Shown one piece after another: positions 41,091 to 60,935 of a stretch of DNA of 64,000 nucleotides. A model generated the notes under the pieces. The model was not told the DNA's origin and made no database searches. It worked only from the letters and a program-made list of their open reading frames with translations. The first letter of the stretch is position 1. Every line of letters starts with the position of its first letter. The stretch comes from Cellvibrio sp. KY-GH-1 (GTDB lineage Bacteria > Pseudomonadota > Gammaproteobacteria > Pseudomonadales > Cellvibrionaceae), in NCBI RefSeq assembly GCF_008806975.1, contig NZ_CP031728.1:3493501-3557500 (forward strand), read 5' to 3'. The position numbers were made by a program, and so were the translations under genes.

Positions 41091-42449
41091 TTATTCAGAG
41101 AGTGGTATCCGCCAAACATTGCGCTCTTTATCAATGATTCCATTCATTTTTTGAACAACGACTTTATCGACGATTGTCAGCCCAGTCGCAGCCATAGCAT
41201 CAAAAGTATCTATGCCATTATTGGGAAAATTTTTCCGGGTGCGATGAATATTAAAACGGTTGGAGAATGTTTTACCAAAAGCCTGTTCAATTTTATCTTT
41301 ACCGACGATAAAACCGAGCAGCCCGCCCCAGGTCGCCGTTGGGTTATCAGAATCCCAGCCTGCCAGTGCGCCGATTTTTATCGTCGCTTTTAAATCACCT
41401 TCACCGTAAAAAAGACTGATTAAACTGGACGCAAAATTAATTCCGGCTGCAAAACATCCATTGCAATAGAGCTTGCGGGAGGTGAGCGTATAACCATCCA
41501 ATTGCTCTACCTGGTAGCGCTGATAAATTGCATCGCGCGCCTGCTCCCAAGGCACGCCCGATTCATACTGTTGTTTAACAAAATCGTACATAGCTGCAGG
41601 GTATTGCCCCTCCGGTAAATAGCGCCGCGCCTCCTGTGCGAGCCAATGTACCTTTTGCGCGGGCGTTAACGCGGGATCAACGCGCGCGGCAAGCGAATAG
41701 ATAACAACATAGAAACGTGCAATGTCAGCGGCTTCTTTGTCTGCCACTGTGCGTATGGGCAAATCAGCGAGTTGCAGCGCAACATCGGCGCGCGTTGGCG
41801 CAAAAAAACCAAAAATCTCTGTGGTTAATTGCGCGTCAATCATATCGAAATGAGGATTAAGCGGCAGGCTTCCCGTTGCTGGAGGCAATATACCCTGCTG
41901 CATTAGATCCATCGCACGTTGATTGGAAACCCAGAGGAAATTTTCAGAGTTTCCTTCCGGATCTTTACCAAAGGGTGTGGGCTCCTGGGCAGAATAAATG
42001 TGTGTTAACCAGGCATTGCGTATTTGCTCTGGGCTAAGCAGCACCGATTCACTTTGCGCTAGTGCGGTTTGATAAATATATTCAATATCCGTATCGTCAT
42101 CCGCCCCCCAAATGCCGTCCGGACCCACTGTCACAAAGTCGATGTTCGCCGAGAGATTACTCGGAATACCTTGCCCCCAGATACTGGGTTGATCCGGTTT
42201 ACCCCAATCAGCGCGCGTATAAAACGGACCTGTTTTGATTTCGCCGAGATTGCCAACTTTATCCATTTCCGTCACCAAACCAGTCCAGTTAGCTATGCAT
42301 TGCCCCAACCAAAAACCGTACAGTGAGTCCAAATACTGAGTGCGAGAAATTTCAATATAGCGATCACTTGATAATGTTGACCCAGTATGTGAAGACTGAC
42401 TCGCACATCCCACTAACGCAACTAACAAACACAGTGCTCGTAGAGTCAC
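41091..42449 (-). CDS. ADP-ribosylglycohydrolase-family lipoprotein
   Basis: 452 residues from GTG at 42449 (GGGAG 7 bases upstream); the frame extends 10 codons further to a TTG inside a terminator stem and this is rejected. The lipoprotein signal LCLLVALVGC gives anchoring at C15. ADP-ribosylglycohydrolase-fold motifs: LDSLYGFWLGQCIANWTG near the start, GADDDTDIEYIY, and GALAGWDSDNPTATWGGLLGFI near the C-terminus, the acidic pairs that bind two Mg ions. An exported member cannot act on cytosolic ADP-ribosyl proteins; hydrolysis of a glycoside in the glucan locus is an inference. It lies downstream of the GH16 gene across a terminator. Confidence 0.85.
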   Translation of the reverse strand: MTLRALCLLVALVGCASQSSHTGSTLSSDRYIEISRTQYLDSLYGFWLGQCIANWTGLVTEMDKVGNLGEIKTGPFYTRADWGKPDQPSIWGQGIPSNLSANIDFVTVGPDGIWGADDDTDIEYIYQTALAQSESVLLSPEQIRNAWLTHIYSAQEPTPFGKDPEGNSENFLWVSNQRAMDLMQQGILPPATGSLPLNPHFDMIDAQLTTEIFGFFAPTRADVALQLADLPIRTVADKEAADIARFYVVIYSLAARVDPALTPAQKVHWLAQEARRYLPEGQYPAAMYDFVKQQYESGVPWEQARDAIYQRYQVEQLDGYTLTSRKLYCNGCFAAGINFASSLISLFYGEGDLKATIKIGALAGWDSDNPTATWGGLLGFIVGKDKIEQAFGKTFSNRFNIHRTRKNFPNNGIDTFDAMAATGLTIVDKVVVQKMNGIIDKERNVWRIPLSE

Positions 42450-42462
42450 AATTGATGCTCCC

Positions 42463-42496
42463 AAAAAAAACGGCTGCAATTTTGCAATTGCAGCCG
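42463..42496 (-). terminator. Terminator between GH16 and the ADP-ribosylglycohydrolase gene
   Basis: CGGCTGCAATT-TTGC-AATTGCAGCCG, a perfect 11-base stem followed on the minus strand by eight T. The next gene's ribosome-binding site (GGGAGC, 42462-42457) starts directly at the end of the T run, so that gene has no room for its own promoter after the terminator. Confidence 0.92.
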
Positions 42497-42517
42497 TTAA
42501 TAGTTATTTCGTTGAAA

Positions 42518-47360: not shown

Positions 47361-47462
47361 AAATTACCTCGCCGTAGAAATATTATTGTTGGATAGTCAG
47401 GTTGCTAATAATTTGTTGGTTGTTCACGTATCAGGTCAGCTACCACTCCAAATAGCAAAAAT

Positions 47463-47501
47463 GCCCCCCGCATTCTCCTTCGAGGAAAGAATGTGGGGGG
47501 C
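47463..47501 (-). terminator. Terminator inside the GH3 leader
   Basis: GCCCCCC(A)CATTCT paired with AGAATG(C)GGGGGGC, then ATTTTTG on the minus strand. It lies 103 bases upstream of the GH3 start and downstream of the shared motif at 47702. Confidence 0.8.
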
Positions 47502-47701
47502 AAAGCAAGGAGAGCTAACAAGCGTAATTCGGGTTGGCATATGTGTACCTAAACCACTCTTGCTAACACCCATGGGGACCTGACATCACCCAGGGGTTCA
47601 GTCCCAGTGAGAAAACGGATCACTGGCACACCGAACAGCGGCTCAACCACGGGCGCGCTATCCGGCTGACCAATGCATAGTGGCATCGGAATCAAAAGGG
47701 T

Positions 47702-47714
47702 GTCGTCCCACTTT
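47702..47714 (-). promoter_or_regulatory. Shared glucan-locus motif, site a (GH3)
   Basis: Minus strand AAAGTGGGACGAC, preceded by ATT. It is nearly identical to sites upstream of the TonB receptor, GH81 and the small secreted protein, and points in the direction of transcription of GH3, about 345 bases before the start codon. Confidence 0.6.
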
Positions 47715-47833
47715 AATCAGCGGTGGAACATGGGGCTGTTCACTTTTGTGAGGGGGATTTTTTCATACGGCGTTCTGATAAATTTTGGCGTTTGAGCTAG
47801 TCGAACCTGCCTTTTTTTTCGTTTAAATAAAAA

Positions 47834-47859
47834 AGCCGGTTATTGGGTTATAACCGGCT
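47834..47859 (-). terminator. Terminator of the first halogenase-like gene
   Basis: AGCCGGTTAT-TGGGTT-ATAACCGGCT, perfect 10-base stem followed by TTTTTTAT on the minus strand. Confidence 0.93.
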
Positions 47860-47897
47860 TTGAGCAGACATTCACTTCAGGTGAAGGCGGGGAAAAA

Positions 47898-49457
47898 CTA
47901 GATTTTCTGAAACCCGAACTCACGCACCTTGTTCAAGAGCGCTCGGTTCGTCGGCAAGTTGTTTATAAATGACTGGGTTTTTTTCATATTGGCGTTAAAC
48001 AGTTCACCCGCTTTTTCACTGTTTGCTGCCGCTGCTCGCTTGGCCACCGATGAAATCTGTGTGTCAAACCCCATGCCGTAAAGCACGTATTGGTAGCTCG
48101 CCCAGGGAAACATTTCATCGCCGCGAATATCGTGTTTCCAGGGAACGTGATAACGCCAGAGGTCGAGTAATTCGCGCAGTCCATCCGGCTGGGTTGAGTC
48201 TGCCAAGTGATCGCGCCAGTAGTCGGTATCGCGTCGCTCACTCAATACATAGTGCAATTTCAGGAATTCAATGATGCGCTGCCAGTGATCAAAGAACTGC
48301 TGGTTAAAGCGTTTAGCCACAGTATCCATCACCGCGCGTGTTGCCGGTAGTTGTTCGGCGATCATTTGCGCCGACAATTCAATCAACACCAACGCCGTTG
48401 CTTCAAGCGGTTCAATGAAGCCCGCCGCTATACCCACACCCACACAGTTCTTGTGCCATAACACCTTGCGATAACCGGGGTTAAAGGTCAGCTTGCGCGG
48501 CATAATTTTTTCAGCGGCCGCCTTGCCGATAGCGGGTTCAAGATAGTCCTGCAGATTTTTCAGCACCTGCTCATCACTGGTGTGCGCACTGGAAAAAACA
48601 TGGCCGATCCCACGCCGCGTCGGCAGGCCAATATCCCAAATCCAGCCGCAATCCTGCGCGGTAGAAACCGTGCAGGATTGAATGGGCGATTCCGTTTCGC
48701 CATAAGGAATTTGCACCGCCAGGGCACTATCGTTAAACAACACCCGGCGCTCTTCGTTAAGCGGGATTTGGTAGTGCTCGCCTAACAACAACGAGGCAAA
48801 ACCGGTGCAGTCGATAAATAAATCCGCAACCAGGTCACCATTCATCTTGGTGGAAATGGAGGCAATATCACCGTTTTCAGCAGAATTAATTTTTATGACG
48901 TGATCCTGAATATAAGTTACGCCCAGTTTTTCAGTGCAGTGCTTTTTCAGGAAGTTGGAAAATTTACCCGCATCCAGATGATAGCCATAGTTACTGGCAC
49001 CACCATACTCCGGGGAAGTAATTAATTTAGGTGCGAGATTACGATCTGAAATAAAGCGAATGGGGCAGACAGCATCGGAAAAATTCACTTGATCGCGATG
49101 CGCTAGCCATTGCTCCGCCAGATTAAAGTCGTTGCCGCCATCGGGCAGACTAAAAGGATGGTAGTAGGCGCCGCCAGCCGGCTTCAACCAATCGACAAAC
49201 TTGGAGCCTTGCTTAAAGCTTGCATCGCATTCGCGAAAAAATTCTGTCTCCGACACACCAATTTTTTTCAGGGTAGAACGCATGGAAGGCCAGGTGCCTT
49301 CGCCCACACCGATAGTAGGCACGTCGGGTGATTCAACCAACACGAGTTCCAGGCCGTTATCTGGATCGACCAAATGCTCGGCCGCAATTACTCCTGCCGT
49401 TAACCAACCGGCAGAACCACCGCCGACAATCATTATTTTTTTAATTGGATTATTCAT
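47898..49457 (-). CDS. Flavin-dependent tryptophan halogenase homologue 1
   Basis: 519 residues. FAD fold IMIVGGGSAGWLTAGVIA at the N-terminus, GVGEGTWPSMRSTLKKIG, a lysine in SFKQGSKFVDW where halogenases have their catalytic lysine region, and GIAAGFIEPLEATALVLIE (the conserved loop near the active site). The WxWxIP motif of true halogenases is altered to WIWDIG. Members of this family next to TonB receptors are not known to chlorinate tryptophan; they may modify a sugar- or receptor-linked molecule. It is a paralogue of 50465-51949 and has its own terminator. Confidence 0.85.
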   Translation of the reverse strand: MNNPIKKIMIVGGGSAGWLTAGVIAAEHLVDPDNGLELVLVESPDVPTIGVGEGTWPSMRSTLKKIGVSETEFFRECDASFKQGSKFVDWLKPAGGAYYHPFSLPDGGNDFNLAEQWLAHRDQVNFSDAVCPIRFISDRNLAPKLITSPEYGGASNYGYHLDAGKFSNFLKKHCTEKLGVTYIQDHVIKINSAENGDIASISTKMNGDLVADLFIDCTGFASLLLGEHYQIPLNEERRVLFNDSALAVQIPYGETESPIQSCTVSTAQDCGWIWDIGLPTRRGIGHVFSSAHTSDEQVLKNLQDYLEPAIGKAAAEKIMPRKLTFNPGYRKVLWHKNCVGVGIAAGFIEPLEATALVLIELSAQMIAEQLPATRAVMDTVAKRFNQQFFDHWQRIIEFLKLHYVLSERRDTDYWRDHLADSTQPDGLRELLDLWRYHVPWKHDIRGDEMFPWASYQYVLYGMGFDTQISSVAKRAAAANSEKAGELFNANMKKTQSFINNLPTNRALLNKVREFGFQKI

Positions 49458-49901
49458 TTTCTGTTTGACCCGTAACCACTATGGCTGTGTAGTGGCTGGC
49501 ATTATGCCCCAGGCCCACGCGGGGCGCACCTCTCGGATTATTGCTATCCGCTATCCCTGATCACCCGATGGCCGCTGCAACCAACCCACCCCCTTATTTC
49601 CCCGTACATCGTTCACCGATTTTGCCCAGTTTTAACCAACACAAAAGGTGGGACGATATTTTTTGCATTTAGGGTTACAACTCTCGCCCACGTCAAGGCC
49701 GAGCCTTACTGCTTGTTTTAGCTGTAGTTAGAGTGACGCGACAAGCAGTCAAGTTTGAACCCGCGAGAAATTTCTGGTGGGTTCGATCATCAGCCAGGAG
49801 GCTGATAACACTGGCGATGTAATTTGCATCGCCGCGAATATTCAACCGGATGCTGAATATTACGCGCGCATAATCAACCTAAACAATGAATGGGAATTTA
49901 T
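49458..49901. other. Divergent intergenic region with motif site b
   Basis: 444 bases between halogenase 1 (minus) and the small secreted protein (plus). It contains the shared motif at 49645-49656 and a hairpin CATCAGCC-AGGA-GGCTGAT near 49790-49810 in the leader of the plus-strand gene. No other gene seen. Confidence 0.5.
49645..49656 (+). promoter_or_regulatory. Shared glucan-locus motif, site b
   Basis: AAGGTGGGACGA on the plus strand, in the orientation that the other copies have toward their genes; it therefore points to the small secreted protein gene at 49902 (about 245 bases), but it also lies about 190 bases upstream of halogenase 1 in reverse orientation. Confidence 0.55.
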
Positions 49902-50372
49902 ATGAAATTAGTAAAATTAATCCTGGGTATCAGTATCTCGCTCGCGGGCAGCTTGGCCGCGAGCAGCTTTGCGCAATCAACCCAACCTTCGGGTTGCAGC
50001 TGGGTTAACACCAGCGTGCAAAACATTCCCTCTGGCGCGATTGTTACATCATCGTGCCAACTGAACGGCACTTCAATTGCGACACGCGAACAAAAACATC
50101 ACCAGTACAATCCATCTACGTGCAGCATCACCTGGGTTGCATCGGGTTATGTGTCCAGCGGCGCTTGTGACAGTGCAGTTATTTTAAAATATGTCACTAC
50201 CAGCACACCGAGCAGTTGTAATACCGGTGCCACATTAATAGTACAAACTGGTCCTAATGGTTCATTAAATCCGAATATGACACCCAGCCAATTCTGTGGC
50301 CAGAATTGTCCCTACACGGTACAACCACTGGACCCATATTCTTATCCACGCTTGAAATACACGTGCAATTAA
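49902..50372 (+). CDS. Small secreted Cys-rich protein, unknown
   Basis: 156 residues from the ATG at 49902 (GGGA 7 bases upstream). Signal peptide 1-24 (LILGISISLAGSLAASSFA). The mature part is Thr/Ser-rich with eight cysteines (SGCSW, SSCQLN, STCSITW, SGACDS, SSCNTG, FCGQNCPY, KYTCN), which suggests disulfide-stabilised beta structure. No family recognised. The only plus-strand gene inside the glucan locus, inserted between the two halogenase-like genes and carrying a copy of the shared motif upstream. A glucan-binding role is possible but not supported by a recognised module. Confidence 0.7.
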   Translation: MKLVKLILGISISLAGSLAASSFAQSTQPSGCSWVNTSVQNIPSGAIVTSSCQLNGTSIATREQKHHQYNPSTCSITWVASGYVSSGACDSAVILKYVTTSTPSSCNTGATLIVQTGPNGSLNPNMTPSQFCGQNCPYTVQPLDPYSYPRLKYTCN

Positions 50373-50395
50373 CTCCGCCCGGTATTTGCGAACAC

Positions 50396-50429
50396 AAAAA
50401 AGCCGGATAACTTTTATCCGGCTTTTTTT
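50396..50429. terminator. Bidirectional terminator
   Basis: AGCCGGATAA-CTT-TTATCCGGCT with A5 before and T7 after, between the convergent small secreted protein and halogenase 2 genes. Confidence 0.95.
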
Positions 50430-50464
50430 ATTGTCACTGGCCAAGTATTGGCAAAAAAATAATT

Positions 50465-51949
50465 TTAACCAGGCGCTATCGCTTTGCAGTAATGATTAAT
50501 AAATTGCTGGTGACTGGGGAAGCGCGCCAGATATTGATTGTGTTCGTTTTCGATGGAATTCATGAGTTTCACCAACTCTTCATCGCTGAGTTTATCCACC
50601 ACCGGGTGATATGCAGTGGGGGTTATACCCTGCCCTAACATCACCTGCTGCCAGGAACCTTCATGAAATAGTTCGTCCTGCTCTTTAAATACGCTGGTGG
50701 TGTTTTTATAAACTTCAATTTTGCGCGCAAGGGTTTCCGGAATAGACATGCGGCGGCAGTAATTCCAGAAAGCACTATCGCTACGTTGAGTCACATGGTA
50801 ATGCAGAATAATAAAATCGCGGATACGTTCGTATTCATAGCGCGACTGGCGATTGTATTCATCAATTTCCGTTTGATTAATTGCATCGCCGGGGAACATG
50901 CGAATCAAGCGCACAATACCGGTTTGGATTAAATGCAAACTGGTGGATTCCAGCGGCTCCAAAAATCCACTCGACAAACCAATTGCAATACAATTTTTAT
51001 TCCACTGCTTAAGCGCGCGCCCGGTGCGAAATTTAATCAGCCGAGGCTCAGTTCTTACCTCACCCTCCACATTTTCCAGCAGGAGTTTTTTAGCATCCTC
51101 ATCGCTACTATAACGACTGCAATAAACCAGCCCATTACCCACACGATGCTGCAAGGGAATGCGCCATTGCCAACCCGCGGAGTGAGCAATAGAGCGGGTA
51201 TAGGGAATAGGTTCACCTACCGATTCAGTTTGTACGGCAAGCGCACGATCGCACGGCAACCAGTGTGACCAGTCTTCAAACCCGGTGTGCAGTGTGTGTT
51301 CAATCAGCAGCGCGCGAAAACCCGAGCAATCAATAAATAGTTCACCGGCAATGATATCGCCCGCTTGCAGTTTTACCGATTCAATAAAGCCATCATCGCG
51401 GGTTTGCACTGATTCAATGAAACCTTCGATACGTTTTACACCGCGCGCTTCGCTGTATTTACGTAAATAAGCCGCGTATAAACCGGCATCAAAATGATAG
51501 GCATAATCCAGCCCGCTATTGGGGTCGATCATGCATTTGTTGGCTTTGGCGGTGCGAATATTCAACGAATAATCGAAATAACTTTTTGCCACACCCATGC
51601 GTTTTGCTTTCAACCAGAAATGCTGGAAGTTGGCCATCCAGGAATCCTTACCCACCAGGCCAAAGGGGTGCATATACACATCGCCCTGCGCACCCCAGTT
51701 TTCAAATTGAATACCCAGTTTAAACGTGCCCTGAGTAGTTTTTAAAAACTCCGCTTCATCAATGCCCAACAATTTGTTAAAGGATTTTACCGCCGGAATG
51801 GTTGCCTCACCCACCCCCACAGTGCCAATCGCCTCGGATTCAATCAGGGTAATTTGCTGGGTTGCGCCAAACGCGTTGGATAAGGCCGCAGCAGCCATCC
51901 AACCGGCGGAACCACCGCCGACGATTACAATGCGATTATTTTTTTTCAT
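50465..51949 (-). CDS. Flavin-dependent tryptophan halogenase homologue 2
   Basis: 494 residues. FAD fold IVIVGGGSAGWMAAAALS, GVGEATIPAVKSFNKLLG, TFKLGIQFENW (candidate catalytic lysine), an intact WxWxIP motif in AGWQWRIPLQHRVGNG, and IGLSSGFLEPLESTSLHLIQ. This copy keeps all motifs expected of a halogenase, unlike homologue 1. It is the last gene of the TonB receptor-SapC-cupin unit, 37 bases after the cupin stop. The substrate is unknown; flavin would have to be supplied by a separate reductase not seen here. Confidence 0.88.
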   Translation of the reverse strand: MKKNNRIVIVGGGSAGWMAAAALSNAFGATQQITLIESEAIGTVGVGEATIPAVKSFNKLLGIDEAEFLKTTQGTFKLGIQFENWGAQGDVYMHPFGLVGKDSWMANFQHFWLKAKRMGVAKSYFDYSLNIRTAKANKCMIDPNSGLDYAYHFDAGLYAAYLRKYSEARGVKRIEGFIESVQTRDDGFIESVKLQAGDIIAGELFIDCSGFRALLIEHTLHTGFEDWSHWLPCDRALAVQTESVGEPIPYTRSIAHSAGWQWRIPLQHRVGNGLVYCSRYSSDEDAKKLLLENVEGEVRTEPRLIKFRTGRALKQWNKNCIAIGLSSGFLEPLESTSLHLIQTGIVRLIRMFPGDAINQTEIDEYNRQSRYEYERIRDFIILHYHVTQRSDSAFWNYCRRMSIPETLARKIEVYKNTTSVFKEQDELFHEGSWQQVMLGQGITPTAYHPVVDKLSDEELVKLMNSIENEHNQYLARFPSHQQFINHYCKAIAPG

Positions 51950-51986
51950 GGCGAACTATCTATAAAAAAATTGGTGGGAAGAGCCA

Positions 51987-53000
51987 TTATCGGTTTAACC
52001 GATTCAATAACTGCGAACGCAAACGGCGCGCGGCGGTCTCATCGATATCACCGAGCACACCGAGCTTATCCTGAGGAATATGTGCCGTGTCTTCAGGGTT
52101 CGCATCAAAAATGTAGTAGTCGAATAGATTTTTCCAATGCTGACGTTCATCGGCCGGGAGCGAACGAATATTCATCAGCGCATGGGTAAAGGCATCCTGC
52201 GGTGAGCCCAGGTAATTGGGGAACGCCGTCCACCAGTAATTCACCATTACATTAAACGGCATTAATCCTTCAACATGGTGCCACCACATACTGGGAATAT
52301 AAATCGCATCGCCCGGTTCCAATTCGGCAATTTGCGCGTGCGCCAGCGCTTCTCTATAGCGAGGAAATTTTTCAAAGTCGGGATTGTGTAAATCCACCAG
52401 ACTGATTGCCGGGCCGGCGGGATTAAAATCCAGCGGTCCAATGTATAAATTTTGTAATTGATCCGGAGGGAAGACGACAAAGCGGCGCTTACCAATTACT
52501 ACGCAGGCAATATTGTCAGGAATATCGTGATGGGCAGAGACGATGGTTCTATTACCCATCCACACACTGACACGCGGATTGAATTGCCCCAGATTTAAAT
52601 CATTGTGCGCGCGAAAGCCGGGCACGCAGGCATTAACAGGCGCCGAGTCCACATAATAGGCGCGCTGCGAACCATTGGCGTGCAGGCGATTAATATTTTC
52701 GTAAACATTGGTGAGCGATGAACGCGCGCGTTCGTAGGCAAAGCCGGTGAAATCCTGATTGTAGAAAATCGCACCGTTATTATTTTCATCGCCAATGGCT
52801 GTATTCACCAGTTCACCATTATAAAACTGGCAGAGATAATCAAAACCAGCCTGCGCAGAATCTTGTGCCGCCTGCACAATGGGCCATTGTTTTACCAGAC
52901 CTTTGAGCACCAGAGGTACGACCGAGGTTAATACCCAATCCGGAATTGCATCGGCACTGACACCCTCAACGACATTTATGGCTTGCAGGTTTTGCAACAT
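51987..53000 (-). CDS. Cupin-8/JmjC-like protein
   Basis: 337 residues. Cupin_8 fold with GNRTIVSAHHDIPDNIACVV (iron-ligand H-x-D type site), KRRFVVFPPDQLQNLYIGPL, and ELEPGDAIYIPSMWWHHVEG (second histidine). These are Fe(II)/2-oxoglutarate-dioxygenase-like hydroxylases in better-known relatives. Here it lies between SapC and halogenase 2 with gaps of 27 and 37 bases, the standard order next to TonB receptors of this class. The substrate is unknown; an oxidative modification coupled to the halogenase is speculative. Confidence 0.88.
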   Translation of the reverse strand: MLQNLQAINVVEGVSADAIPDWVLTSVVPLVLKGLVKQWPIVQAAQDSAQAGFDYLCQFYNGELVNTAIGDENNNGAIFYNQDFTGFAYERARSSLTNVYENINRLHANGSQRAYYVDSAPVNACVPGFRAHNDLNLGQFNPRVSVWMGNRTIVSAHHDIPDNIACVVIGKRRFVVFPPDQLQNLYIGPLDFNPAGPAISLVDLHNPDFEKFPRYREALAHAQIAELEPGDAIYIPSMWWHHVEGLMPFNVMVNYWWTAFPNYLGSPQDAFTHALMNIRSLPADERQHWKNLFDYYIFDANPEDTAHIPQDKLGVLGDIDETAARRLRSQLLNRLNR

Positions 53001-53027
53001 GATACTGCCTCACTCACCCGGCGCTAC

Positions 53028-53747
53028 TTAGAATTGCAGCAATTTATTTTTTTTACTCACCAACTTCTTAATGTTGGCCATAGAGGCAATTGACATATAA
53101 ATCAATTCCAGAAAATTTTGACTGTGCAAACGCGCCAATTGTTCTGCCCCCAGATCGCGCAACACCATTTCATTGATGGTATAGAAGCCTCCTAACTCTA
53201 CTTCCGCTCCGTTGTCCAACATAATTTTCAACACGAAGGGCTCCAGTAGATCTTCCGCCTGCAAAATGTCGGTGTAGCGCTGGCAAATAGTTACACCATT
53301 AATCAATTCCGCAAGAATACTGTTAATACTTTCCAAATAATCGGAATTTCCACCTTGCGGCAGAAACACCGGCAGGCCTTCTGTTGCGCTCACGCGCGGA
53401 TGATCCATATCCACGTGAATCACCGGTTGCCGGTGGCCGGTCGCGGAATCCTGAGTATAGCCAATGGAAAATGGAATACGCTCCATGGAGAGAGGCAAAT
53501 AATTCCCACACCAACCCGCTGCATCAATAAATAAATTTTCGTCGGGAGCAAACCCAAACAGCGCTACGGCTTCGAATTGGTTGTTGGTGGTTTTGCGATA
53601 AAAAATCGGGTAGTTCGCAGCGACCTGCCGAAATTCCCAAGGCACTATCGCGGCGTAGCCTATCGCATCACCAAGGTGCCGGCCCCGCGCTGGATTTATT
53701 TTTAAATCTTTATGAGTGACGTTATCGAGCAACACATTCTTGGCCAC
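53028..53747 (-). CDS. SapC-family protein
   Basis: 239 residues from GTG at 53747 (CAGGAG 7 bases upstream); the frame extends 24 codons further but through the terminator-proximal spacer. SapC-family features: KINPARGRHLGDAIGYAAIVPWEF near the start and AVALFGFAPDENLFID. No signal peptide with this start. SapC was named from Campylobacter S-layer work, but in TonB-receptor clusters its role is unknown. It is the second gene of the unit and lies after a terminator that follows the receptor gene. Confidence 0.87.
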   Translation of the reverse strand: MAKNVLLDNVTHKDLKINPARGRHLGDAIGYAAIVPWEFRQVAANYPIFYRKTTNNQFEAVALFGFAPDENLFIDAAGWCGNYLPLSMERIPFSIGYTQDSATGHRQPVIHVDMDHPRVSATEGLPVFLPQGGNSDYLESINSILAELINGVTICQRYTDILQAEDLLEPFVLKIMLDNGAEVELGGFYTINEMVLRDLGAEQLARLHSQNFLELIYMSIASMANIKKLVSKKNKLLQF

Positions 53748-53804
53748 AACAGACTCCTGACAACTGCAAAAAATTGAGTCAACCGTTTTGATCGACAGAA
53801 AAGA

Positions 53805-53831
53805 AAAAGCCGCTAACACACAGCGGCTTTT
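53805..53831 (-). terminator. Terminator between the TonB receptor and sapC
   Basis: AGCCGCT-GTGTGTT-AGCGGCT followed by TTTTC on the minus strand, 28 bases past the receptor stop codon and inside the apparent operon. It would lower expression of sapC, cupin and halogenase relative to the receptor. Confidence 0.85.
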
Positions 53832-53858
53832 CCTTAACTCAACTAACCCGTAAACGAA

Positions 53859-56819
53859 TTAGAAACTGTAGCGAACACCCAGGTTATAGCGCGCACCGTA
53901 TTGGTAAGCCGATTTAAACTGGTTCTCATAACGCGCATACACACGTTGCGATTCTTCACTCACGTTAATACCTTCCACAAACACAGTCATACCTTCCACA
54001 AACGGCAAGTCATAACTCACGGAGATATCGATTTGGCCGTAGTCTTCGGTGTAGTAAGGCGCATTACCTTCGCCCACGCCGTTCAAGTAGGTATCGCGCC
54101 AGTTGTAAGCGATACGCGCCTGCAGACCATTTTTGTCATAGAAACCCACCAGGTTGGCTGAGTCACTCATGCCAGGCAATACGAACTGGAAGTCGGTAGA
54201 CGCGTTATCCACATCCAGATCACCGTCCACCAGGGTCGCGTTAGCCTGCACACCGAAACCGGATTCGCCGAACATGTGCTGAACCGCCAGTTCCCAGCCG
54301 TAAAGCTTGGCTTGTTCCTGGTTGATTGGCTGGGATACTTTGAACTTGGCCAATGGGTCGGTGTTGTCCTGAATAATCGGACTGCCTGCTGGTCTACCGG
54401 TGTTGATGTTGATTTGCTCGATAATGGTGGTGTCATTAACCGGCTTGCCCGCTGCTTGCAGCGCCGCTTTCGCCGCTTCAACACGTGGACCCGCTGACGG
54501 ATCACGCAGATTGCCCACGGTGCGTTCGATAATTTGGTTAACGATAAAGTCATCCACTTGCTTCATGAAGAAGCCCGCCGACACATAGCTGGAATCCGCG
54601 TAGTACCACTCGGCCGACAGGTCGAAATTGTCTGCCATAAAGGGCTTCAGATCCGGGTTACCTGCGGTACCGGTACGCTCGCCCGGCTTCGGACGCGAGG
54701 TCACATCGAAGGTGCCAATCATGCTACCCAGGGTTGGACGGGTAATGGATTTGCTGTAGCTCAGACGGCCGACTACGTCATCGGTAATTTGCAAGCTGGT
54801 ATCCAGGCTTGGCAACCACACATCGTAATCACCTTTCTCGGCGGTGTAGCTACTGTCTTTCGCCAGGTTACGGCTCCACTCGGTAGAGCTTACCCACACC
54901 AGTTCAGTGGGGTCTTTCTGGAAGCTGTTGGACTCAATAGACGTTGATTCGTAGCGCAGGCCGGTAGTGGTTTTCAGCTCCATACCAACCAAGTCGCCAA
55001 CATTGTTGACTTCCATGTAGGCGCTGGTGGTTTCTTCGGTTACGCGGTGATCGTTAACAGGATCGCCGTTTACATTGGGTTGCATTACGCATGGTTTACA
55101 GGCTGAAGGACCTGAACCCCATACCCAATCCACTGGCTCTTTCCACTTGCCGTTTTCCAACACTTGCACGTTGGTTTCAAAATCCCAGGAGTGATAGAAA
55201 GGCACGTTGGAGCCACCGCCAGAGAAGGATGGTGTCAGACCATTCAGATTTTCTTGCTTGAACACTTCATCCGGGAAGAGGTTAGCATTGCCGCCGTACC
55301 AGCCCGCCGGGATCTGACCCGTGCTGTAGCCTCTCCAACGGTTTTCGATCTCGGATTGGCCTGCGCCGAAATCAATAGAGGTAATTCCGGTATCGGCGTT
55401 GGTGTCGAAGCTGCCGGTGAATTGGAACTGGGTTACTTCCGATTTGTTAATGTTCAGGTTGGCTTCACCGAACAGCGAATCGTAAGACGCTGCTGTTGGG
55501 AACCCATCAACGATACCCGGGTCATTTTCTTTAAAGGTCACGTGCATGTAGGGAATATCCTGTCCCTTGGTAGCATCGTAAGTTTTTTGGTCGATAGACG
55601 CCGCCGCCAAAATCAGGAAGGCATTGTGGCCACGACCCACGCCGCCATTTTCATTGGTGGAGTTGTGCGCATCGAAACCGAGCTTCAGGTTGTCGGACGC
55701 TTCCCACGCGATGTTGAAGCCAACGGAGTTGTTCTCGGTTTCAGAGGTGTTCAAACGGATATTGGACGCAAAGTCATCGCCCGCGGCAGTCAGCTTGGTG
55801 ATAGTACCGTTCTTGTCGATCACGACTTCGCGCGCGTCAGAACCTGAATCGTTGTACCAAATACCAACACCGGTGTTGAGTGCAGTCATGTCAACCTTGG
55901 CGTAGGTGTAATCCAGGGTCGCTTTCAGGGTATCTATTGGCTGGTATTGCAATACCAATTGGCCGTTGGTTCTTTCGCGGTGGAAATCTTCAATGCCGTA
56001 ACCGAAGTTACGTGGGTAGTAAACGTTGCCGGTTTTGTCTTCGCGGTTGTCTTGCACTACGCGCAGGTTAGAGCCAGCCGCTGATTCAAAATCGATATTG
56101 TTACGCCAGTTGGCGATATCGGCGTTAACCGCGCGGTTGTCGCGCTCCTGATAAGAACCGGAAATCGCTACGCCAAAGGTGTCATCGGCAAAGGTATTGC
56201 TGAAAATGCCAGACACTTCCGGAGTAATGTCATCACCCACTTCGTTAGTAGAGTCCATTACTGCCTTGGCACCCACAGATGCCTTAAGACCTGGGTTATC
56301 CAGCGGGCGAGCAGTTTTGATGTTCACCAGCGAGCCAATGCCACCCGAGGTGCGGGTAGCACTGAATGTTTTGTAGACCTCTACACCACTCACGGTTTCT
56401 GCCGCCAGATCGGAGAAGTCAAACGAACGGCTATAGCCATTGGTCGGCATTTGACGGTTGTTCAAAGTCACCAGGTTGAAGTCGGGGCCGAAGCCGCGCA
56501 CGGTAATTTGTGAACCTTCGTTGTTGTTGCGGCTAATGGATACACCGGAAATACGCTGCAGTGATTCTGCCAGGTTGGTATCGGGAAACTTGCCGATATC
56601 CTCCGCCGAAATCGCATCGACAACACCCTTGGCATCGCGCTTAACGTCCATCGCACGCTGTAACGAGCCTTTAATACCGGTAACAACAACTTCTTCTACG
56701 TTGTTATCTTGCTGTGCCATGGCCATGCCGGTCATGCCGAGCATTGCTGAAGCAACGGCGGTGGTGATGAGCTTTCTCTTGAAGCCTTGGGTTTGCTTGT
56801 TGGTTAGTGTCTTACTCAT
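53859..56819 (-). CDS. TonB-dependent receptor (oligosaccharide type)
   Basis: 986 residues from the ATG at 56819 (GGAG 7 bases upstream); 42 further codons are open. Signal peptide 1-34 (SAMLGMTGMAMA). A TonB-box-like EEVVVTG follows, then the plug domain (DISAEDIGKFPDTNLAESL, GVSISRNN, ITVRGFGPDFNLVTLN) and the long beta-barrel ending in ARYNLGVRYSF with a terminal Phe. The sequence style is that of the Xanthomonas/Caulobacter-type TonB receptors (TIGR01782), which import plant or algal oligosaccharides. The neighbourhood points to beta-1,3-glucan oligosaccharides. Confidence 0.95.
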   Translation of the reverse strand: MSKTLTNKQTQGFKRKLITTAVASAMLGMTGMAMAQQDNNVEEVVVTGIKGSLQRAMDVKRDAKGVVDAISAEDIGKFPDTNLAESLQRISGVSISRNNNEGSQITVRGFGPDFNLVTLNNRQMPTNGYSRSFDFSDLAAETVSGVEVYKTFSATRTSGGIGSLVNIKTARPLDNPGLKASVGAKAVMDSTNEVGDDITPEVSGIFSNTFADDTFGVAISGSYQERDNRAVNADIANWRNNIDFESAAGSNLRVVQDNREDKTGNVYYPRNFGYGIEDFHRERTNGQLVLQYQPIDTLKATLDYTYAKVDMTALNTGVGIWYNDSGSDAREVVIDKNGTITKLTAAGDDFASNIRLNTSETENNSVGFNIAWEASDNLKLGFDAHNSTNENGGVGRGHNAFLILAAASIDQKTYDATKGQDIPYMHVTFKENDPGIVDGFPTAASYDSLFGEANLNINKSEVTQFQFTGSFDTNADTGITSIDFGAGQSEIENRWRGYSTGQIPAGWYGGNANLFPDEVFKQENLNGLTPSFSGGGSNVPFYHSWDFETNVQVLENGKWKEPVDWVWGSGPSACKPCVMQPNVNGDPVNDHRVTEETTSAYMEVNNVGDLVGMELKTTTGLRYESTSIESNSFQKDPTELVWVSSTEWSRNLAKDSSYTAEKGDYDVWLPSLDTSLQITDDVVGRLSYSKSITRPTLGSMIGTFDVTSRPKPGERTGTAGNPDLKPFMADNFDLSAEWYYADSSYVSAGFFMKQVDDFIVNQIIERTVGNLRDPSAGPRVEAAKAALQAAGKPVNDTTIIEQININTGRPAGSPIIQDNTDPLAKFKVSQPINQEQAKLYGWELAVQHMFGESGFGVQANATLVDGDLDVDNASTDFQFVLPGMSDSANLVGFYDKNGLQARIAYNWRDTYLNGVGEGNAPYYTEDYGQIDISVSYDLPFVEGMTVFVEGINVSEESQRVYARYENQFKSAYQYGARYNLGVRYSF

Positions 56820-56952
56820 GGAATTCTCCACTTTATTTATTGGTATGGAATTATCCTGGCCCGCTCTATGGAGCAGATTCTCTCGGGTCCCCCTCGTATC
56901 GGGCCATGACCGCTTTTCTAGCGGGGCGATAATCCCAACTGGCATCTAATGA

Positions 56953-56965
56953 GTCGTCCCACCTT
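56953..56965 (-). promoter_or_regulatory. Shared glucan-locus motif, site c (TonB receptor)
   Basis: Minus strand AAGGTGGGACGAC, 134 bases before the receptor start codon and in its direction. A weaker relative (GTGGGAAGA) lies at about 57083-57095. Overlaps by two bases the TTGAAAATTT element described next. Confidence 0.62.
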
Positions 56966-56981
56966 GAAAATTTATTCAAAC
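56964..56981 (-). promoter_or_regulatory. TTGAAAATTT...TTCAAAC element upstream of the TonB receptor
   Basis: TTGAAAATTTATTCAAAC, the same element as at 44734-44750 upstream of GH16 with one inserted A. Confidence 0.45.
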
Positions 56982-57116
56982 CTGACGCATATCACTTTTT
57001 TTCCACCTTACTGGGAAGCTATTAAATTTAATATTTTCAATGGCTTATCAACAAAAACAGCGCTAAAAAACACTGTGTAGATTCTTCCCACTCGCAAAAG
57101 TGGTACTAAAAAAAAG

Positions 57117-57146
57117 CCCCCTAAAGAACGGGTTCTTTAGGGGGCG
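57117..57146 (-). terminator. Terminator of the GH81 gene
   Basis: GCCCCCTAAAGAAC / GTTCTTTAGGGGGC, a perfect 14-base stem with 2-base spacer, followed by eight T on the minus strand. Confidence 0.96.
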
Positions 57147-57179
57147 AAAGGGCATCCCACTCAACGTGGGAAGACGAAC

Positions 57180-60100
57180 TTATAAACGGGTAATACGGAA
57201 CCAGTTGAAGTTCCATCCAGCCTGTTGGGCGAAGACACCGAAGCTGTAAGTGCCCGCATTCAGGGTCACGGTATGGCTAACGGTAGTCCAGTTTTGCCAG
57301 CCGCCAGTGGCTGGAATAGCGAGATTACCCAGCTGAATCGCACCGGCATTCAGGTCAGCAGAAAGCAGTGACCCCGATGGACTGGCAACGCGGTATTCAA
57401 TGCGATAGCTGCCCGTTGCCGGGACGGTGATGTTGCCGTAGGCCATCCAGTCACCGGCATCGATGTAAGCCACGTTCTGGCCGCCATTGGTGTCGGTAGT
57501 GGCTTCGGTCTGCACACCACTCATGGCAGTAAAGGCTTCGGCCTGTACCAACTGGGTAAACGCCGGCGTTGAACTACTGGCCGCCACACTGCTTGCAGGA
57601 GTGCTGGAGGTACCGCCAGTGCAGCAACCAAACTGCACCCAGGCGGTATCAATCGCACCAGCACCCTGGGCGATGGTGAAGAAGTAGCGCACAGTCGCAC
57701 CCGCCGGAATACCGGTCAGGGTATAGGTGTTGGAGTTATCCGCATTGTGGGTCATGCGGATATTCTGCTGGGCGCCACCATTGATGGTGTAGTGAATGTC
57801 TGCCCAAGCCGCTGCATTGGCATGGAAGCGCACACTGGTGCTGGTTAAAACCGTATGCCCGTAGGGCGTTGCAACGGCAGAGCTAGCGACTGAGGAAGTC
57901 GCCACGGACGATTTGGAAGAGCTAGCCACAGAACTTGGGGTAGAGCTGGCAACCGAACTGCTGGTACCGGAACAACCTGCACCACTCGAAACCACCGATT
58001 GACCGGTGCGCTTCAGGGCATAACCCTTGGCTGGAACCGAGAAGCTGGTGCCATCCGAATAGGCCACATTGATCGCTGAGCAACCGAAGTTGTAGGCGAT
58101 GTAGGTGAGGATGCCGCCCTTGTTAAAGGCGACTGCGGCCGGGTGGTTAGCGGTTAATGCACCAGTACCCGTCGCCAGGCTACCCAATTGCTTGAGGGTA
58201 TAGACCCAATGATAGGTATGTGCTTTTGTTTCACCCTCTTCCGGAATCAGGTTGTTCAAGCCGTAGGCGAGCATGTCATCCACCGCCGCCTGACCGTTTG
58301 TCATTGACCAAATATTCCACCAGACATCGCGCCACTGGCCGTTAGGCAGACCGGAAGGTTTTCCATTAGAGGATTCACTCAAACCCAATGCGACATAGTT
58401 GTTCAGGTAGCCGGCGTGCTGACCAATGTGCAGTACCAACGGGCTGAGTGGCAAACCCTGAATACCCAGGATGTGCGCATATGCACCGGAGAACCAGGTA
58501 GAGAACACGTGGCCGTTGCCCCAAATAATGGAGGTGGTTGGCTTGGTATAGCTGGCGGAGAAGTTATCGTAATCGCCACCCAGACCTTTGTAACGGTCGA
58601 TGTTGTTCCAGTATTCCCAGTAGGTTGCGGCCGATGACGCATGCAAATACATGCCACGTTCGGTCAGGGCATTGTTACCGGTGATCATGCCGTAGAGCAC
58701 AATCGCACCATAGGCGTTAGCGGCTTCCGACGTGGATTCGTTGTTGTTGCCCAGTGCGAAGTTGGCGTGACCGGAAGCCCAGGAGAAACCATAGGCCGGG
58801 TCAAAGTTACGCAGATAGGGGAACTGGCTGTCATCGCGCCCAGCGGCGTAATCGCGAATTAACAATTCCACCATGGGACCGTATTGGGTAGATCCACACC
58901 AGGCCGCATCAACACGACAGATTTCAGCGGCAGCACGCACAAAGTAACCGTAGTGGAAATGGTGGTCGTTCAATTGTTGCTGTGCACCGAAGGACTCATC
59001 AAAGCCCAGCAGGGTGTTCCAGTTGCTGTCGTAGGCGAAGTACTTGGTGGTATCCAGGTTGCCGGTGGTGTTGGCGCGGAACCAATCCTGCAATTCGGCT
59101 TTAAGCCACGCAATCATTTGGTTAGCTTCGGTGGTCATACCAATAGAACGAGCAATCGCGGCCAGTTCCGCTACCTTGCCGTAGTTTTTACCGGCCCAGT
59201 AGGTATCAGTAGCGGTGTTCCACTTGGCGGTACCCTGGTTTACAAACTCAGTCACCAGCGCGCGCAATTGGGTCGCGTTGTAATCGCCAATATTTTCCGG
59301 GAAGTAAGGCAGCACGCCCACGTAGGGGATGGTGTAGCTAAAGCTGTTGGTCGCCGCAAACTTGGTCACCCCGCGCGCCGAGCGAACCTTATAGCTGGTC
59401 ACGGCCTGGGTAGAGTTTTTCCAGTGCAACGGCAACAGGCCCGCCAGTGTAGTCACATTGGCACCATTGAATTGGTACTGGTGGCTGATGGTGACTTTGT
59501 TGGTATTGCGGTCTACGGCGTAATTGATATTGACCTTATCCACGCGTTGGGTTGCGTACTGGATAAAGGTATTGATCATGGATGCATCCGGCGTACCGGT
59601 CAGTTGCGGCAACCAGGCCACGGTCATACGTTTGGTGCCGTTACTTACACCGATGCTGGCGGTGTTTACGCCGCTGAAGGTAGTGGCATCGTGGCCGGTA
59701 ATCAGGAAGGCATTGCGATTGCCTGCCACTTCGGTCCAAACACCCAAACTATTCCCACTTTGATAGAAAATTCCTTTTTCACCGCTATCTGCTGCCTTGG
59801 TGCGTACGACAAGGTTTCCCTGCAGGGCGGTGAAATAAACATAGGGCGAGCCATGCACGAAGGTCGCTTCCATTACCGGGGTAGAACCGCTTTTCCATTG
59901 CACGGTGACTGAGCCATCGCTGTAGTCTTTGAGAAAGGCGTCGAGGTTGGAATAGGCGGAGTTGCCAATGGCGATGCCATCAAACACTTCACTGAATGGA
60001 TCAGGAATGGCATAGATGGTGTCATTAGTGCCGGTTCGCAGGCCACCGGGAATACCCAAAAGACGTACACCGCGATCGGTAATGCGGGCGGTGATTGGGT

Positions 60101-60443
60101 CCGGGGTGATATAGCCAGAGTCAGTCGATGCGCCAACTTTCATTTCGCCCATGAAGGAAATCGAACCCCACCAGCGATGGGTCATGGTTGGCTTGGTAGT
60201 AGCTGGCGACACTTTTTGTGGGTAGATCGGGGTAGGTGCGCCTATAGGGTTACAGCTGCTAACGCCGGGCTTTACCACACCGGCGTTGTGAATCCAGTTG
60301 CCGTAGTCGACAGTACATTTCCAGCCGGCGGTATTGATGGTATCGCTGATATTACCCGCACCATAATTGAGAATGGCGGCATGGCTGGCCTGAGCAAAGC
60401 CCAGGACGCCCAGCAAAAGCAAGGCTCGCTTGAATCGGTTCAT
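57180..60443 (-). CDS. GH81 endo-beta-1,3-glucanase with CBM56-like and CBM6 modules
   Basis: 1087 residues from the ATG at 60443 (AGG upstream); the open frame runs 24 codons further. Signal peptide 1-22. The GH81 catalytic region spans about 60-745: QQLNDHHFHYGYFVRAA, FSWASGHANFALGNNNESTS (the conserved glutamates of the family) and IIWGNGHVFSTWFSGAYAHI. A poly-Ser linker (about 800-835) leads to a CBM56-like beta-1,3-glucan-binding module (DIHYTINGGAQQNIRMTHN to CC), a second Ser linker, and a CBM6 (QAEAFTAMSGVQTEA, YIDAGDWMAYGNI, FNWFRITRL) at the C-terminus. It is a secreted enzyme that opens long or triple-helical beta-1,3-glucans. Confidence 0.93.
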   Translation of the reverse strand: MNRFKRALLLLGVLGFAQASHAAILNYGAGNISDTINTAGWKCTVDYGNWIHNAGVVKPGVSSCNPIGAPTPIYPQKVSPATTKPTMTHRWWGSISFMGEMKVGASTDSGYITPDPITARITDRGVRLLGIPGGLRTGTNDTIYAIPDPFSEVFDGIAIGNSAYSNLDAFLKDYSDGSVTVQWKSGSTPVMEATFVHGSPYVYFTALQGNLVVRTKAADSGEKGIFYQSGNSLGVWTEVAGNRNAFLITGHDATTFSGVNTASIGVSNGTKRMTVAWLPQLTGTPDASMINTFIQYATQRVDKVNINYAVDRNTNKVTISHQYQFNGANVTTLAGLLPLHWKNSTQAVTSYKVRSARGVTKFAATNSFSYTIPYVGVLPYFPENIGDYNATQLRALVTEFVNQGTAKWNTATDTYWAGKNYGKVAELAAIARSIGMTTEANQMIAWLKAELQDWFRANTTGNLDTTKYFAYDSNWNTLLGFDESFGAQQQLNDHHFHYGYFVRAAAEICRVDAAWCGSTQYGPMVELLIRDYAAGRDDSQFPYLRNFDPAYGFSWASGHANFALGNNNESTSEAANAYGAIVLYGMITGNNALTERGMYLHASSAATYWEYWNNIDRYKGLGGDYDNFSASYTKPTTSIIWGNGHVFSTWFSGAYAHILGIQGLPLSPLVLHIGQHAGYLNNYVALGLSESSNGKPSGLPNGQWRDVWWNIWSMTNGQAAVDDMLAYGLNNLIPEEGETKAHTYHWVYTLKQLGSLATGTGALTANHPAAVAFNKGGILTYIAYNFGCSAINVAYSDGTSFSVPAKGYALKRTGQSVVSSGAGCSGTSSSVASSTPSSVASSSKSSVATSSVASSAVATPYGHTVLTSTSVRFHANAAAWADIHYTINGGAQQNIRMTHNADNSNTYTLTGIPAGATVRYFFTIAQGAGAIDTAWVQFGCCTGGTSSTPASSVAASSSTPAFTQLVQAEAFTAMSGVQTEATTDTNGGQNVAYIDAGDWMAYGNITVPATGSYRIEYRVASPSGSLLSADLNAGAIQLGNLAIPATGGWQNWTTVSHTVTLNAGTYSFGVFAQQAGWNFNWFRITRL

Positions 60444-60935
60444 GATAATGACCTGCATGATGGTGTTGTTATTGGTTATTCGCACCTGGGTTTTTTGCGT
60501 CCCGCCCACAGCCACTTCTTATTGTTATTAATCCTTAAAGACACAACGGAGCTGTAATCGCGCAAAGACTTGGAGGAGACCCCAGTTACACCAGTGTTGC
60601 CCAAGGCCTCAACCCTGTCGTCCCAGCTTGGGTTTTCACCCTAAGGTGGGCGACGTCTCACTTTAATTTGGCACAAAGAGGGAATTGGCACTAACGACCC
60701 GCGGTGGGCTGCTATAGTTTTGAGGTTCAGGTGCCAAGGGCGGTAAGCGCCATGGCGCGCAGATTCGCTCGCCAAACGTCCAGCCAACGAGGCCGTTACC
60801 AATTAACCCTCACCGGTTAGACCCCAAGGTCCATTATGTGGTTAACTGGCTGGACCTTAACAACGACACTCTAACCTTCGCTGTAGCGGGGCGCCGCTGG
60901 TATCTGGCTCTGGGAATGAACTGGTAAAACTCTTT
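60444..60935. other. Divergent intergenic region upstream of GH81
   Basis: 492 bases between the GH81 start and the binding-protein-like gene. It carries three copies or half-copies of the shared motif (60617-60667) and the putative promoters of both genes. No other gene seen. Confidence 0.5.
60617..60667 (-). promoter_or_regulatory. Cluster of shared glucan-locus motifs, site d (GH81)
   Basis: Minus strand AAGCTGGGACGAC (60629-60617) and ATTAAAGTGAGACGTC (60667-60652), and on the plus strand AAGGTGGGCGAC (60643-60654). The last and first form an inverted repeat around 60630-60642. ATTAAAGTGAGACGTC matches ATTAAAGTGGGACGAC of site a at 14 of 16 positions. About 175-225 bases before the GH81 start. 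Confidence 0.6.

What the first reader, a model, noticed from the sequence alone, without database searches (positions are those of the whole stretch)
47702..60667. A recurrent 13-base motif marks a candidate beta-1,3-glucan regulon
AAGGTGGGACGAC or a close variant occurs upstream of GH3 (47702-47714), upstream of the small secreted protein or halogenase 1 (49645-49656), upstream of the TonB receptor (56953-56965) and at least twice, plus once inverted, upstream of GH81 (60617-60667). Sites a, c and d all point in the direction of transcription of their gene. Two sites also share a further ATTAAAGTG extension. The one lookalike I noticed outside the locus is a partial match inside ilvA. I infer an operator for an unknown regulator of the locus; no regulator gene lies within it.
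Basis: partly seen in the sequence, partly recalled or inferred. Interest (0 to 1): 0.78.

Follow-up and report, generated by a model that had tools for sequence, protein, structure and literature searches.

The report
Membrane AraC operator with small RNA
The repeated DNA motif is one third of a conserved promoter switch that, most likely through a membrane-embedded activator encoded nearby, turns on a bacterium's genes for eating beta-1,3-glucan together with an apparently undescribed small RNA.

Summary
The motif is real but is only the promoter-proximal third of a composite element: AAAGTGA, CCCAnnTT (inverted half-site), 12-13 bp, AAnnTGGGACGAC, and a -10-like box about 18 bp on. A profile trained on other genomes finds five strong sites in this genome: four in the window, one before an unlinked second GH81. 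The pattern has 63 hits in 144 family genomes against 2 for the reversed control; those examined lie mostly before beta-glucanase or TonB-receptor genes. A regulator gene at the locus edge (39605-40765; seven predicted membrane helices plus AraC domain) co-occurs with it: outside the genus 36 of 38 genomes with the element have the orthologue (Fisher p 6.7e-21, phylogeny uncorrected), and in 21 genomes of one genus a variant lies 108-258 bp upstream of it. I read the element as its activator site. The site "upstream of GH3" precedes a conserved, covarying ~215-nt RNA that ends in a terminator before GH3; it is in 20 of 21 genus genomes and beside the regulator in five genomes of another genus, without Rfam match. 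Published C. japonicus expression of glu81A on fungal necromass fits. Nothing was tested at the bench; the RNA's targets are unknown.

The parts
39605..40765 (+). candidate regulator: 386-aa protein, seven long predicted helices (8-251) and C-terminal AraC-type DNA-binding domain (269-385)
   Evidence: Pfam HTH_18 6.9e-19; six hydropathy segments; AlphaFold2 model pLDDT 76; orthologue in 20 of 21 genus genomes
41091..42479 (-). ADP-ribosylglycohydrolase-family protein (start uncertain; a terminator-like hairpin at 42469-42498 overlaps the listed start)
   Evidence: Pfam PF03747
42518..44650 (-). GH16 beta-glucanase
   Evidence: Pfam PF00722
44808..47360 (-). GH3 glycosidase with Exop_C domain
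   Evidence: Pfam
47455..47672 (-). candidate small RNA (~215 nt); conserved GUUAGCUCUCCUUGC at 47505-47519; intrinsic terminator about 47462-47502
   Evidence: fold z -5.2; covariation; terminator; CM hit 2.8e-41 by a model it helped build
47676..47681 (-). -10-like ACTATG of the GH3-side promoter
47702..47714 (-). site a, element C AAAGTGGGACGAC
   Evidence: R1 4.8e-13
47727..47734 (-). site a, element B CCCATGTT
47740..47746 (-). site a, element A AAAGTGA
47898..49457 (-). tryptophan-halogenase-family protein 1 (regulation uncertain)
   Evidence: Pfam PF04820
49625..49632 (+). site b, element B CCCAGTTT (no A element found)
49645..49657 (+). site b, element C AAGGTGGGACGAT
   Evidence: R1 3.3e-4
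49902..50372 (+). small secreted protein, no Pfam match (ORF can start at 49890)
50465..51949 (-). tryptophan-halogenase-family protein 2
51987..53000 (-). cupin_8 protein
53028..53819 (-). SapC-family protein (start uncertain; a terminator-like hairpin at 53809-53824 overlaps the listed start)
53859..56819 (-). TonB-dependent receptor (start chosen by me at MSKTL; ORF can start at 56945)
56929..56934 (-). -10-like GATTAT
56953..56965 (-). site c, element C AAGGTGGGACGAC
   Evidence: R1 3.2e-12
56979..56985 (-). site c, element B TCAGGTT
56992..56998 (-). site c, element A AAAGTGA
57180..60443 (-). GH81 beta-1,3-glucanase with CBM56 and CBM6 (start chosen by me at MNRFK)
60617..60629 (-). site d, element C AAGCTGGGACGAC
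   Evidence: R1 1.1e-7
60643..60650 (-). site d, element B CCCACCTT
60658..60664 (-). site d, element A AAAGTGA

Best explanation
The motif is the promoter-proximal half-site of a composite operator for the membrane-embedded AraC-type protein encoded at 39605-40765. The protein is predicted to have seven membrane helices and a cytoplasmic two-HTH DNA-binding domain. On a beta-1,3-glucan-derived signal it binds the half-sites A, B and C (inferred), with C at the -35 position, and helps RNA polymerase at a promoter whose recognisable core element is a -10 box (inferred). It thereby induces the TBDR (and by inference the SapC, cupin and halogenase genes after it), GH81, the small secreted protein, an unlinked second GH81, and a structured small RNA that lies before the GH3-GH16 genes; GH3 is then transcribed by read-through past the terminator or from a promoter of its own. 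Shown: sequence, conservation, geometry, genome-wide specificity, co-occurrence and co-localisation, RNA covariation. Inferred: binding, activation, signal, operon extents, and what the RNA does.
For: Held-out profile R1 gives five hits at E <= 3.3e-4 in the own genome: GH3/RNA, TBDR, GH81, second GH81, secreted gene; the next are 0.058 and 0.073. Composite pattern: 63 hits against 2 for the reversed control in 144 family genomes, variant 53 against 1, and 0 of 372 searched genomes of other families of the order. Geometry: B-C gap 12 or 13 bp in 51 of 53 sites; a -10-like peak 18 bp after C that 0 of 2000 letter shuffles reach. Sites remain where the TBDR is a 38-45% identical paralogue. Regulator: orthologue in 20 of 21 genus genomes; outside the genus element and orthologue 36 genomes, element only 2, orthologue only 8, neither 77 (Fisher p 6.7e-21); 54 of 64 hits within 20 kb of an orthologue, 24 within 400 bp, 22 of these 108-258 bp upstream of its start and pointing away. 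Six own-genome AraC paralogue loci: no R1 hit at E <= 1. Published: C. [quoted passage not shown] C. japonicus (G002) carries the site before its GH81.
Against: No binding, mutant or transcription-start data. G016 keeps A, B and TGGGACGA before its GH81 although no orthologue of the regulator was found in that 97%-complete MAG. G141 has a variant hit and no orthologue; G038 has only a 43% homologue. Eight genomes outside the genus have the orthologue and no exact pattern hit. A terminator separates site a from GH3. Neither the co-occurrence test nor the -10 and RNA shuffles correct for relatedness of the sequences. My A pattern is missing in 11 of 53 sites, and the -10 matches of GH81 sites vary in place. 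Weak hits: own genome 0.058 lies before a di-haem protein, not a glycosidase; G016 0.019 lies inside an ORF.
Confidence: 0.82

Rival explanations
1. The operator is real but belongs to another, unlinked transcription factor; the membrane AraC-type gene is only a frequent neighbour.
For: In the window the sites lie 7-20 kb from the AraC-type gene; in G012, G013 and G014 sites lie far from it or on other contigs; G016 has a site and no orthologue found.
Against: 22 sites in 21 genomes of genus g22 lie 108-258 bp upstream of the orthologue's start, and 36 of 38 non-genus genomes with the element have the orthologue. No other regulator family was matched among the 13 proteins of the locus that I scanned with Pfam.
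Confidence: 0.12
2. The GH3 leader RNA is a cis-acting attenuator or riboswitch of GH3 rather than a free small RNA.
For: The terminator lies just before GH3 in most of the genus leaders examined; an exact complement of the conserved loop (ACCTGAC) lies before the GH3 start in the window.
Against: In five genomes of genus g13 the RNA stands 3' of, and convergent with, the AraC-type gene, and I saw no ORF for it to control; the loop complement is not conserved (either 6-mer in 8 of 19 genomes); a relative in G001 (E 1.3e-9) has no TGGG(A/G)CGA in the 250 bp before it.
Confidence: 0.25
3. The motif cluster is chance or duplicated sequence without function.
For: The 13-mer at up to 3 mismatches is at the chance level in the window, and at up to 2 the genome is below the reversed control.
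Against: Conservation at orthologous promoters, fixed geometry and 63 against 2 hits.
Confidence: 0.02

Closest known systems
AraC/XylS-family activators of class II promoters, such as RhaS with two inverted half-sites next to -35 (recalled, comes from no call)
   Same: two-HTH DNA-binding domain; half-sites of which the proximal one sits at -35; activation by promoter contact inferred
   Different: sensor is a predicted seven-helix membrane domain instead of a soluble sugar-binding domain; three conserved elements; other letters
Hybrid two-component systems with AraC-type output in C. japonicus (review PMC10766802, passages)
   Same: sensing of a polysaccharide signal, AraC-type output
   Different: one protein here; only HTH families matched in it, no kinase or receiver domain
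Xyloglucan utilisation locus of C. japonicus (PMC4285296, passages)
   Same: TBDR plus glycosidases in one cluster
   Different: a candidate regulator gene and a conserved operator are present; that paper says its locus appears to lack a sensor or regulator
Small RNA of Caulobacter (PMC6237742; search listing and start of abstract only)
   Same: bacterial small RNA in a paper that also deals with TonB-dependent receptors
   Different: no relation tested; the RNA here stands behind an operator of the glucan regulon and its targets are unknown

Membership tests
AraC/XylS family (regulator gene) | C-terminal ~100-aa domain with two HTH motifs | tested here: met
   Pfam HTH_18 and HTH_AraC above cut-off; model matches AraC-type domains, 3oio TMt 0.85, E 0.0093
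AraC/XylS family (regulator gene) | soluble N-terminal sugar-binding domain (typical, not obligatory; recalled) | tested here: not met
   six hydropathy segments and seven long helices in the model
AraC-type class II operator | proximal half-site at -35, fixed distance to -10 | tested here: met
   -10-like peak 18 bp after C, 0 of 2000 shuffles; transcription start not mapped
AraC-type class II operator | direct binding of the protein | not testable with these tools
   needs gel shift or footprinting
bacterial trans-acting small RNA | own promoter and intrinsic terminator | tested here: met
   operator with -10-like box in front; terminator found by my pattern in 18 of 24 leaders; transcription not shown
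bacterial trans-acting small RNA | conserved structure supported by compensatory changes | tested here: met
   95.1% of cells paired, 10 pairs with changes on both sides, 0 of 500 shuffles
bacterial trans-acting small RNA | acts on other mRNAs | not testable with these tools
   no expression or target data; only 14 own-genome gene starts looked at, no 7-base complement of the tail
any Rfam family | gathering-score match | tested here: not met
   0 in 39000-64000; at E up to 5 only MIR6425, 4.8
sigma-54 promoter | GG-N10-GC at -24/-12 (recalled) | tested here: not met
   read by eye on sites a-c: no GC at the required spacing

The most novel reading that the evidence does not exclude
A one-component membrane receptor made of a seven-helix sensor fused to an AraC domain binds its operators from the membrane and switches on, by one composite promoter type, both the beta-1,3-glucan-degrading apparatus and a new family of trans-acting small RNA whose exposed CUCUCCUUG tail masks ribosome-binding sites of competing genes, so that substrate sensing, enzyme induction and post-transcriptional silencing form one regulon.
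Probability: 0.35. Interest if true: 0.78.

Novelty: new variant of a known kind. Interest (0 to 1): 0.64.

Why it matters
How Cellvibrio senses individual polysaccharides is open in part: the xyloglucan-locus paper calls the sensing proteins unknown (PMC4285296, passages). Here a regulator, its operator consensus, its probable regulon and a small RNA are predicted together, and C. japonicus, for which deletion mutants and RNA-seq are published, carries all of them. If the membrane AraC-type protein binds DNA directly, its paralogues (8 matches in this genome at E <= 1e-20 with itself counted) become a candidate class of receptors whose operators can be sought in the same way.

Tried and rejected
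Rejected or inconclusive: (1) the 13-mer alone as a genome-wide predictor, at chance. (2) Own-genome sites at 2007954, 2009369, 207238 and 2637908: no B element next to them by eye; their genes were not resolved. (3) Sigma-54 promoter: spacing wrong by eye. (4) Known RNA family: none. (5) Cis pairing of the loop GUCAGGU with ACCTGAC before GH3: exact in the window only; either 6-mer in 8 of 19 genomes. (6) Small ORF in the RNA: frames printed for the window only; no frame is open throughout, no codon-level test was made. (7) Fold of the membrane domain: no PDB match at E <= 0.001; the seven-helix part resembles unrelated receptors only weakly. (8) Weak R2 hits in G039, G112, G030, G049, G060 and others: L301 (G112) resembles the tail, the rest did not convince me by eye. 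(9) Genome-wide target prediction was not made; whole genomes were not available as files. (10) Which C. japonicus GH3 and GH16 names (cel3C, glu16A, B, F) belong to this locus was not established. (11) R2 in G042, the sixth g13 neighbourhood searched: no hit; G044 and G047 were searched only with the strict filters. R2 has no hit in the g22 neighbourhoods L250, L253 and L255.

Selection told: A1 holds 49 sites chosen by me from those seen; the own genome was left out, and so were some seen sites (such as L039:16137, those of L062, L055:4212). A5 holds 17 of the 23 leaders of A4; G013 and five g13 leaders were left out, and G018, G004 and the second G010 leader were not in A4. One search leaves out the one genus hit (G006). 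First looks were capped: 150 of 934 candidates of the own genome were scored, 20 per genome with stricter filters. In one search, 70 of the 80 loci were given, and 64 of the 70 had no match. Two of 53 sites gave odd gaps (5, 6). Only part of the hits (30 loci; 20 loci; 20 regions, beside the fetched locus regions) had their genes looked at. Paper searches show capped lists (20 of 546, 12 of 179).
Full report
OBSERVATION. As a bare 13-mer the motif proves little: up to 3 mismatches gives 12 hits in the window against 11.9 expected, and up to 2 gives 46 in the 5,762,391-bp genome against 169 for the reversed pattern. But 4 of the 5 genome sites with at most one mismatch lie within these 13 kb.

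CONSERVATION AND ANATOMY. I fetched orthologous regions from the genus (21 genomes held). The sites recur before GH81, TBDR and GH3, and near the secreted-protein gene in G003 and, more weakly, G001 and G002, even where the TBDR is a different paralogue (38-45% identity). Aligning 49 sites from other genomes (A1) shows a composite element: A = AAAGTGA, B = CCCAnnTT (TCAGGTT at the TBDR), C = AAnnTGGGACGAC. B and C are inverted half-sites. Over these 49 and four own sites the gap between B and C is 12 or 13 bp in 51 of 53; A begins 32-35 bp before C where my pattern finds it (42 of 53). A TATAAT-like hexamer peaks 18 bp after C (mean 2.82 matches; largest value in 2000 letter shuffles 2.27). 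So C lies where a -35 box would be, as in class II activator promoters (recalled).

SPECIFICITY. A sequence profile of A1 (R1, own genome held out) gives in the own genome GH3/RNA 4.8e-13, TBDR 3.2e-12, GH81 1.1e-7, a second, unlinked GH81 at 5.12 Mb 1.5e-6 and the secreted gene 3.3e-4, then 0.058 and 0.073. The composite pattern has 63 hits in 30 of 144 family genomes against 2 for the reversed control, and none in the 372 genomes of other families of the order that were searched (control there: 3 hits in 390 genomes). Among the hits whose genes I looked at, most precede GH81 (three groups), GH3, GH16 or TBDR genes, and GH5- or GH9-like genes by eye in a few. Exceptions: a serine-rich secreted protein (L098), an F5/8-type protein (L101), a di-haem protein behind weak hits, a weak G016 hit inside an ORF (L158), and the RNA described below.

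REGULATOR. At the locus edge, 39605-40765, lies a 386-aa protein with a C-terminal AraC-type domain, six hydropathy segments and, in an AlphaFold2 model of moderate confidence (pLDDT 76, pTM 0.59), seven long helices before the DNA-binding domain. Orthologues (60-94% identity) are in 20 of 21 genus genomes, the own one counted; G016 has only a 43% homologue. Outside the genus I counted 123 genomes: element and orthologue 36, element only 2 (G038, G141), orthologue only 8, neither 77; Fisher p 6.7e-21 without phylogenetic correction (from; orthologue means at least 380 bits). Of 64 hits 54 lie within 20 kb of an orthologue and 24 within 400 bp (some hits are the two strands of one palindrome). 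The variant with TGGGGCGA (53 hits against 1 for the control) is found mostly in genus g22; one of its genomes, G104, has the contig length of a Microbulbifer taiwanensis record. In 21 g22 genomes 22 sites stand 108-258 bp upstream of the orthologue, pointing away from it. Where I looked, the gene on that side seems to be a glucokinase (L265, L269, L274, L275, L277, L279) or GH81 (L253, L268), by eye. Six loci of paralogues of the regulator in the own genome have no R1 hit at E <= 1. This co-localisation makes the protein the most likely ligand of the element.

AGAINST. G016 keeps A, B and TGGGACGA before its GH81 although no orthologue of the regulator was found in that MAG; either the gene is in the missing part or the pairing is not strict. 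Eight genomes outside the genus have the orthologue without an exact pattern hit; of these, R1 finds sites near it in G048 and G053 (2.9e-9, 8.1e-7), only weak ones in G046 and G043 (about 0.04) and none in the G042 neighbourhood; G062, G076 and G098 were not examined further. I found no biochemical evidence.

SMALL RNA. Between site a and GH3 the window has about 340 bp with a strong terminator before GH3. The stretch 47455-47672 folds 5.2 standard deviations better than shuffles. Across 17 genus leaders (A5) the structure has 29 pairs, 10 with changes on both sides and 95.1% of cells paired; 0 of 500 shuffles reach it on four of five measures and 3 of 500 on the fifth, and the slid controls pair 38-57%. 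Its hallmarks are a hairpin with GUCAGG in the loop, a long stem (GUUAGCAAG with CUUGUUAGC) and an unpaired UCUCCUUG before the terminator. A covariance model (R2) finds it in 18 of 21 genus genomes at E <= 1.1e-6, 17 of them its own training sequences; held-out finds are G018, G013 and G004, which makes 20 of 21. In five of six g13 neighbourhoods of the regulator gene the model finds it 3' of that gene and convergent with it (E 1.7e-5 to 0.0044), behind a C-like element in at least four, with no ORF that I could see. That placement argues for a free RNA rather than a GH3 attenuator. A relative in G001 (E 1.3e-9) keeps the tail but has no TGGG(A/G)CGA in the 250 bp before it. Rfam has no match. 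The tail is complementary to Shine-Dalgarno-like sequences; none of the 14 own-genome gene starts I checked has a 7-base complement, so targets are open.

LITERATURE. PMC11497827 (passages) reports for C. [quoted passage not shown] G002 is C. japonicus (identical regulator protein), its only long GH81 match is at 271488-275015, and the site stands before it. PMC12981069 (whole text) gives barley beta-glucan RNA-seq without analysis. My ten searches (open-licence papers, capped lists) listed no paper that I recognised as describing this regulator, operator or RNA; besides those named I saw passages of PMC10766802, PMC10714805 and PMC4285296.

HOW IT MOST LIKELY WORKS. A glucan-derived signal is sensed by the membrane domain (inferred; the ligand is unknown); the DNA-binding domain occupies the half-sites and activates (inferred from geometry). 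The regulon supplies glucanases, outer-membrane uptake and breakdown of the products; in g22 genomes it also seems to include glucokinase and, in L250/L278, a sodium/solute-type transporter, by eye. The small RNA probably adjusts translation of other genes during growth on glucan (speculative).

VERDICT. The finding stands and is larger than described. My odds: operator real about 0.95; membrane AraC-type protein as its regulator about 0.85; activator mode about 0.7; RNA a genuine transcript about 0.85; acting in trans about 0.55.

Noticed in passing
window 47455-47672 (-): Conserved structured RNA with intrinsic terminator between the operator and GH3; became part of the main result.
   Followed up: yes
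L246, L247, L248, L256, L257 (3' of the AraC-type gene): The same RNA stands alone, 3' of and convergent with the regulator gene, in five genomes of another genus.
   Followed up: partly
L265, L269, L274, L275, L277, L279: In g22 (Microbulbifer-like) genomes the operator lies between the regulator and a divergent glucokinase-like gene; in L278/L250 the next gene looks like a sodium/solute sugar transporter.
   Followed up: partly
L159 (own genome 2784792) and L144 (G007): Weak partial operator (A and B elements) before a ~1050-aa F5/8-type plus di-haem oxidoreductase protein.
   Followed up: partly
L062 5328, 6225, 6402 (+): G009 has a second GH81 1.9 Mb from the regulator with three C-like sites in front.
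   Followed up: partly
L298, L300, L306: Weak R2 hits 3' of TonB-receptor-like genes and before a GntR/FadR-like regulator carry ...GGTCTCTTCTT and a terminator; perhaps another 3'-UTR RNA.
   Followed up: no
window 53809-53824 and 42469-42498 (-): Terminator-like hairpins between TBDR and SapC and between GH16 and the ADP-ribosylglycohydrolase gene; the listed ORF starts of the latter two genes are probably too early.
   Followed up: no
window 49902-50372 (+): Small secreted protein without Pfam match is a predicted regulon member; other genus genomes have other unmatched small proteins near the site (L053, L056, L058).
   Followed up: partly
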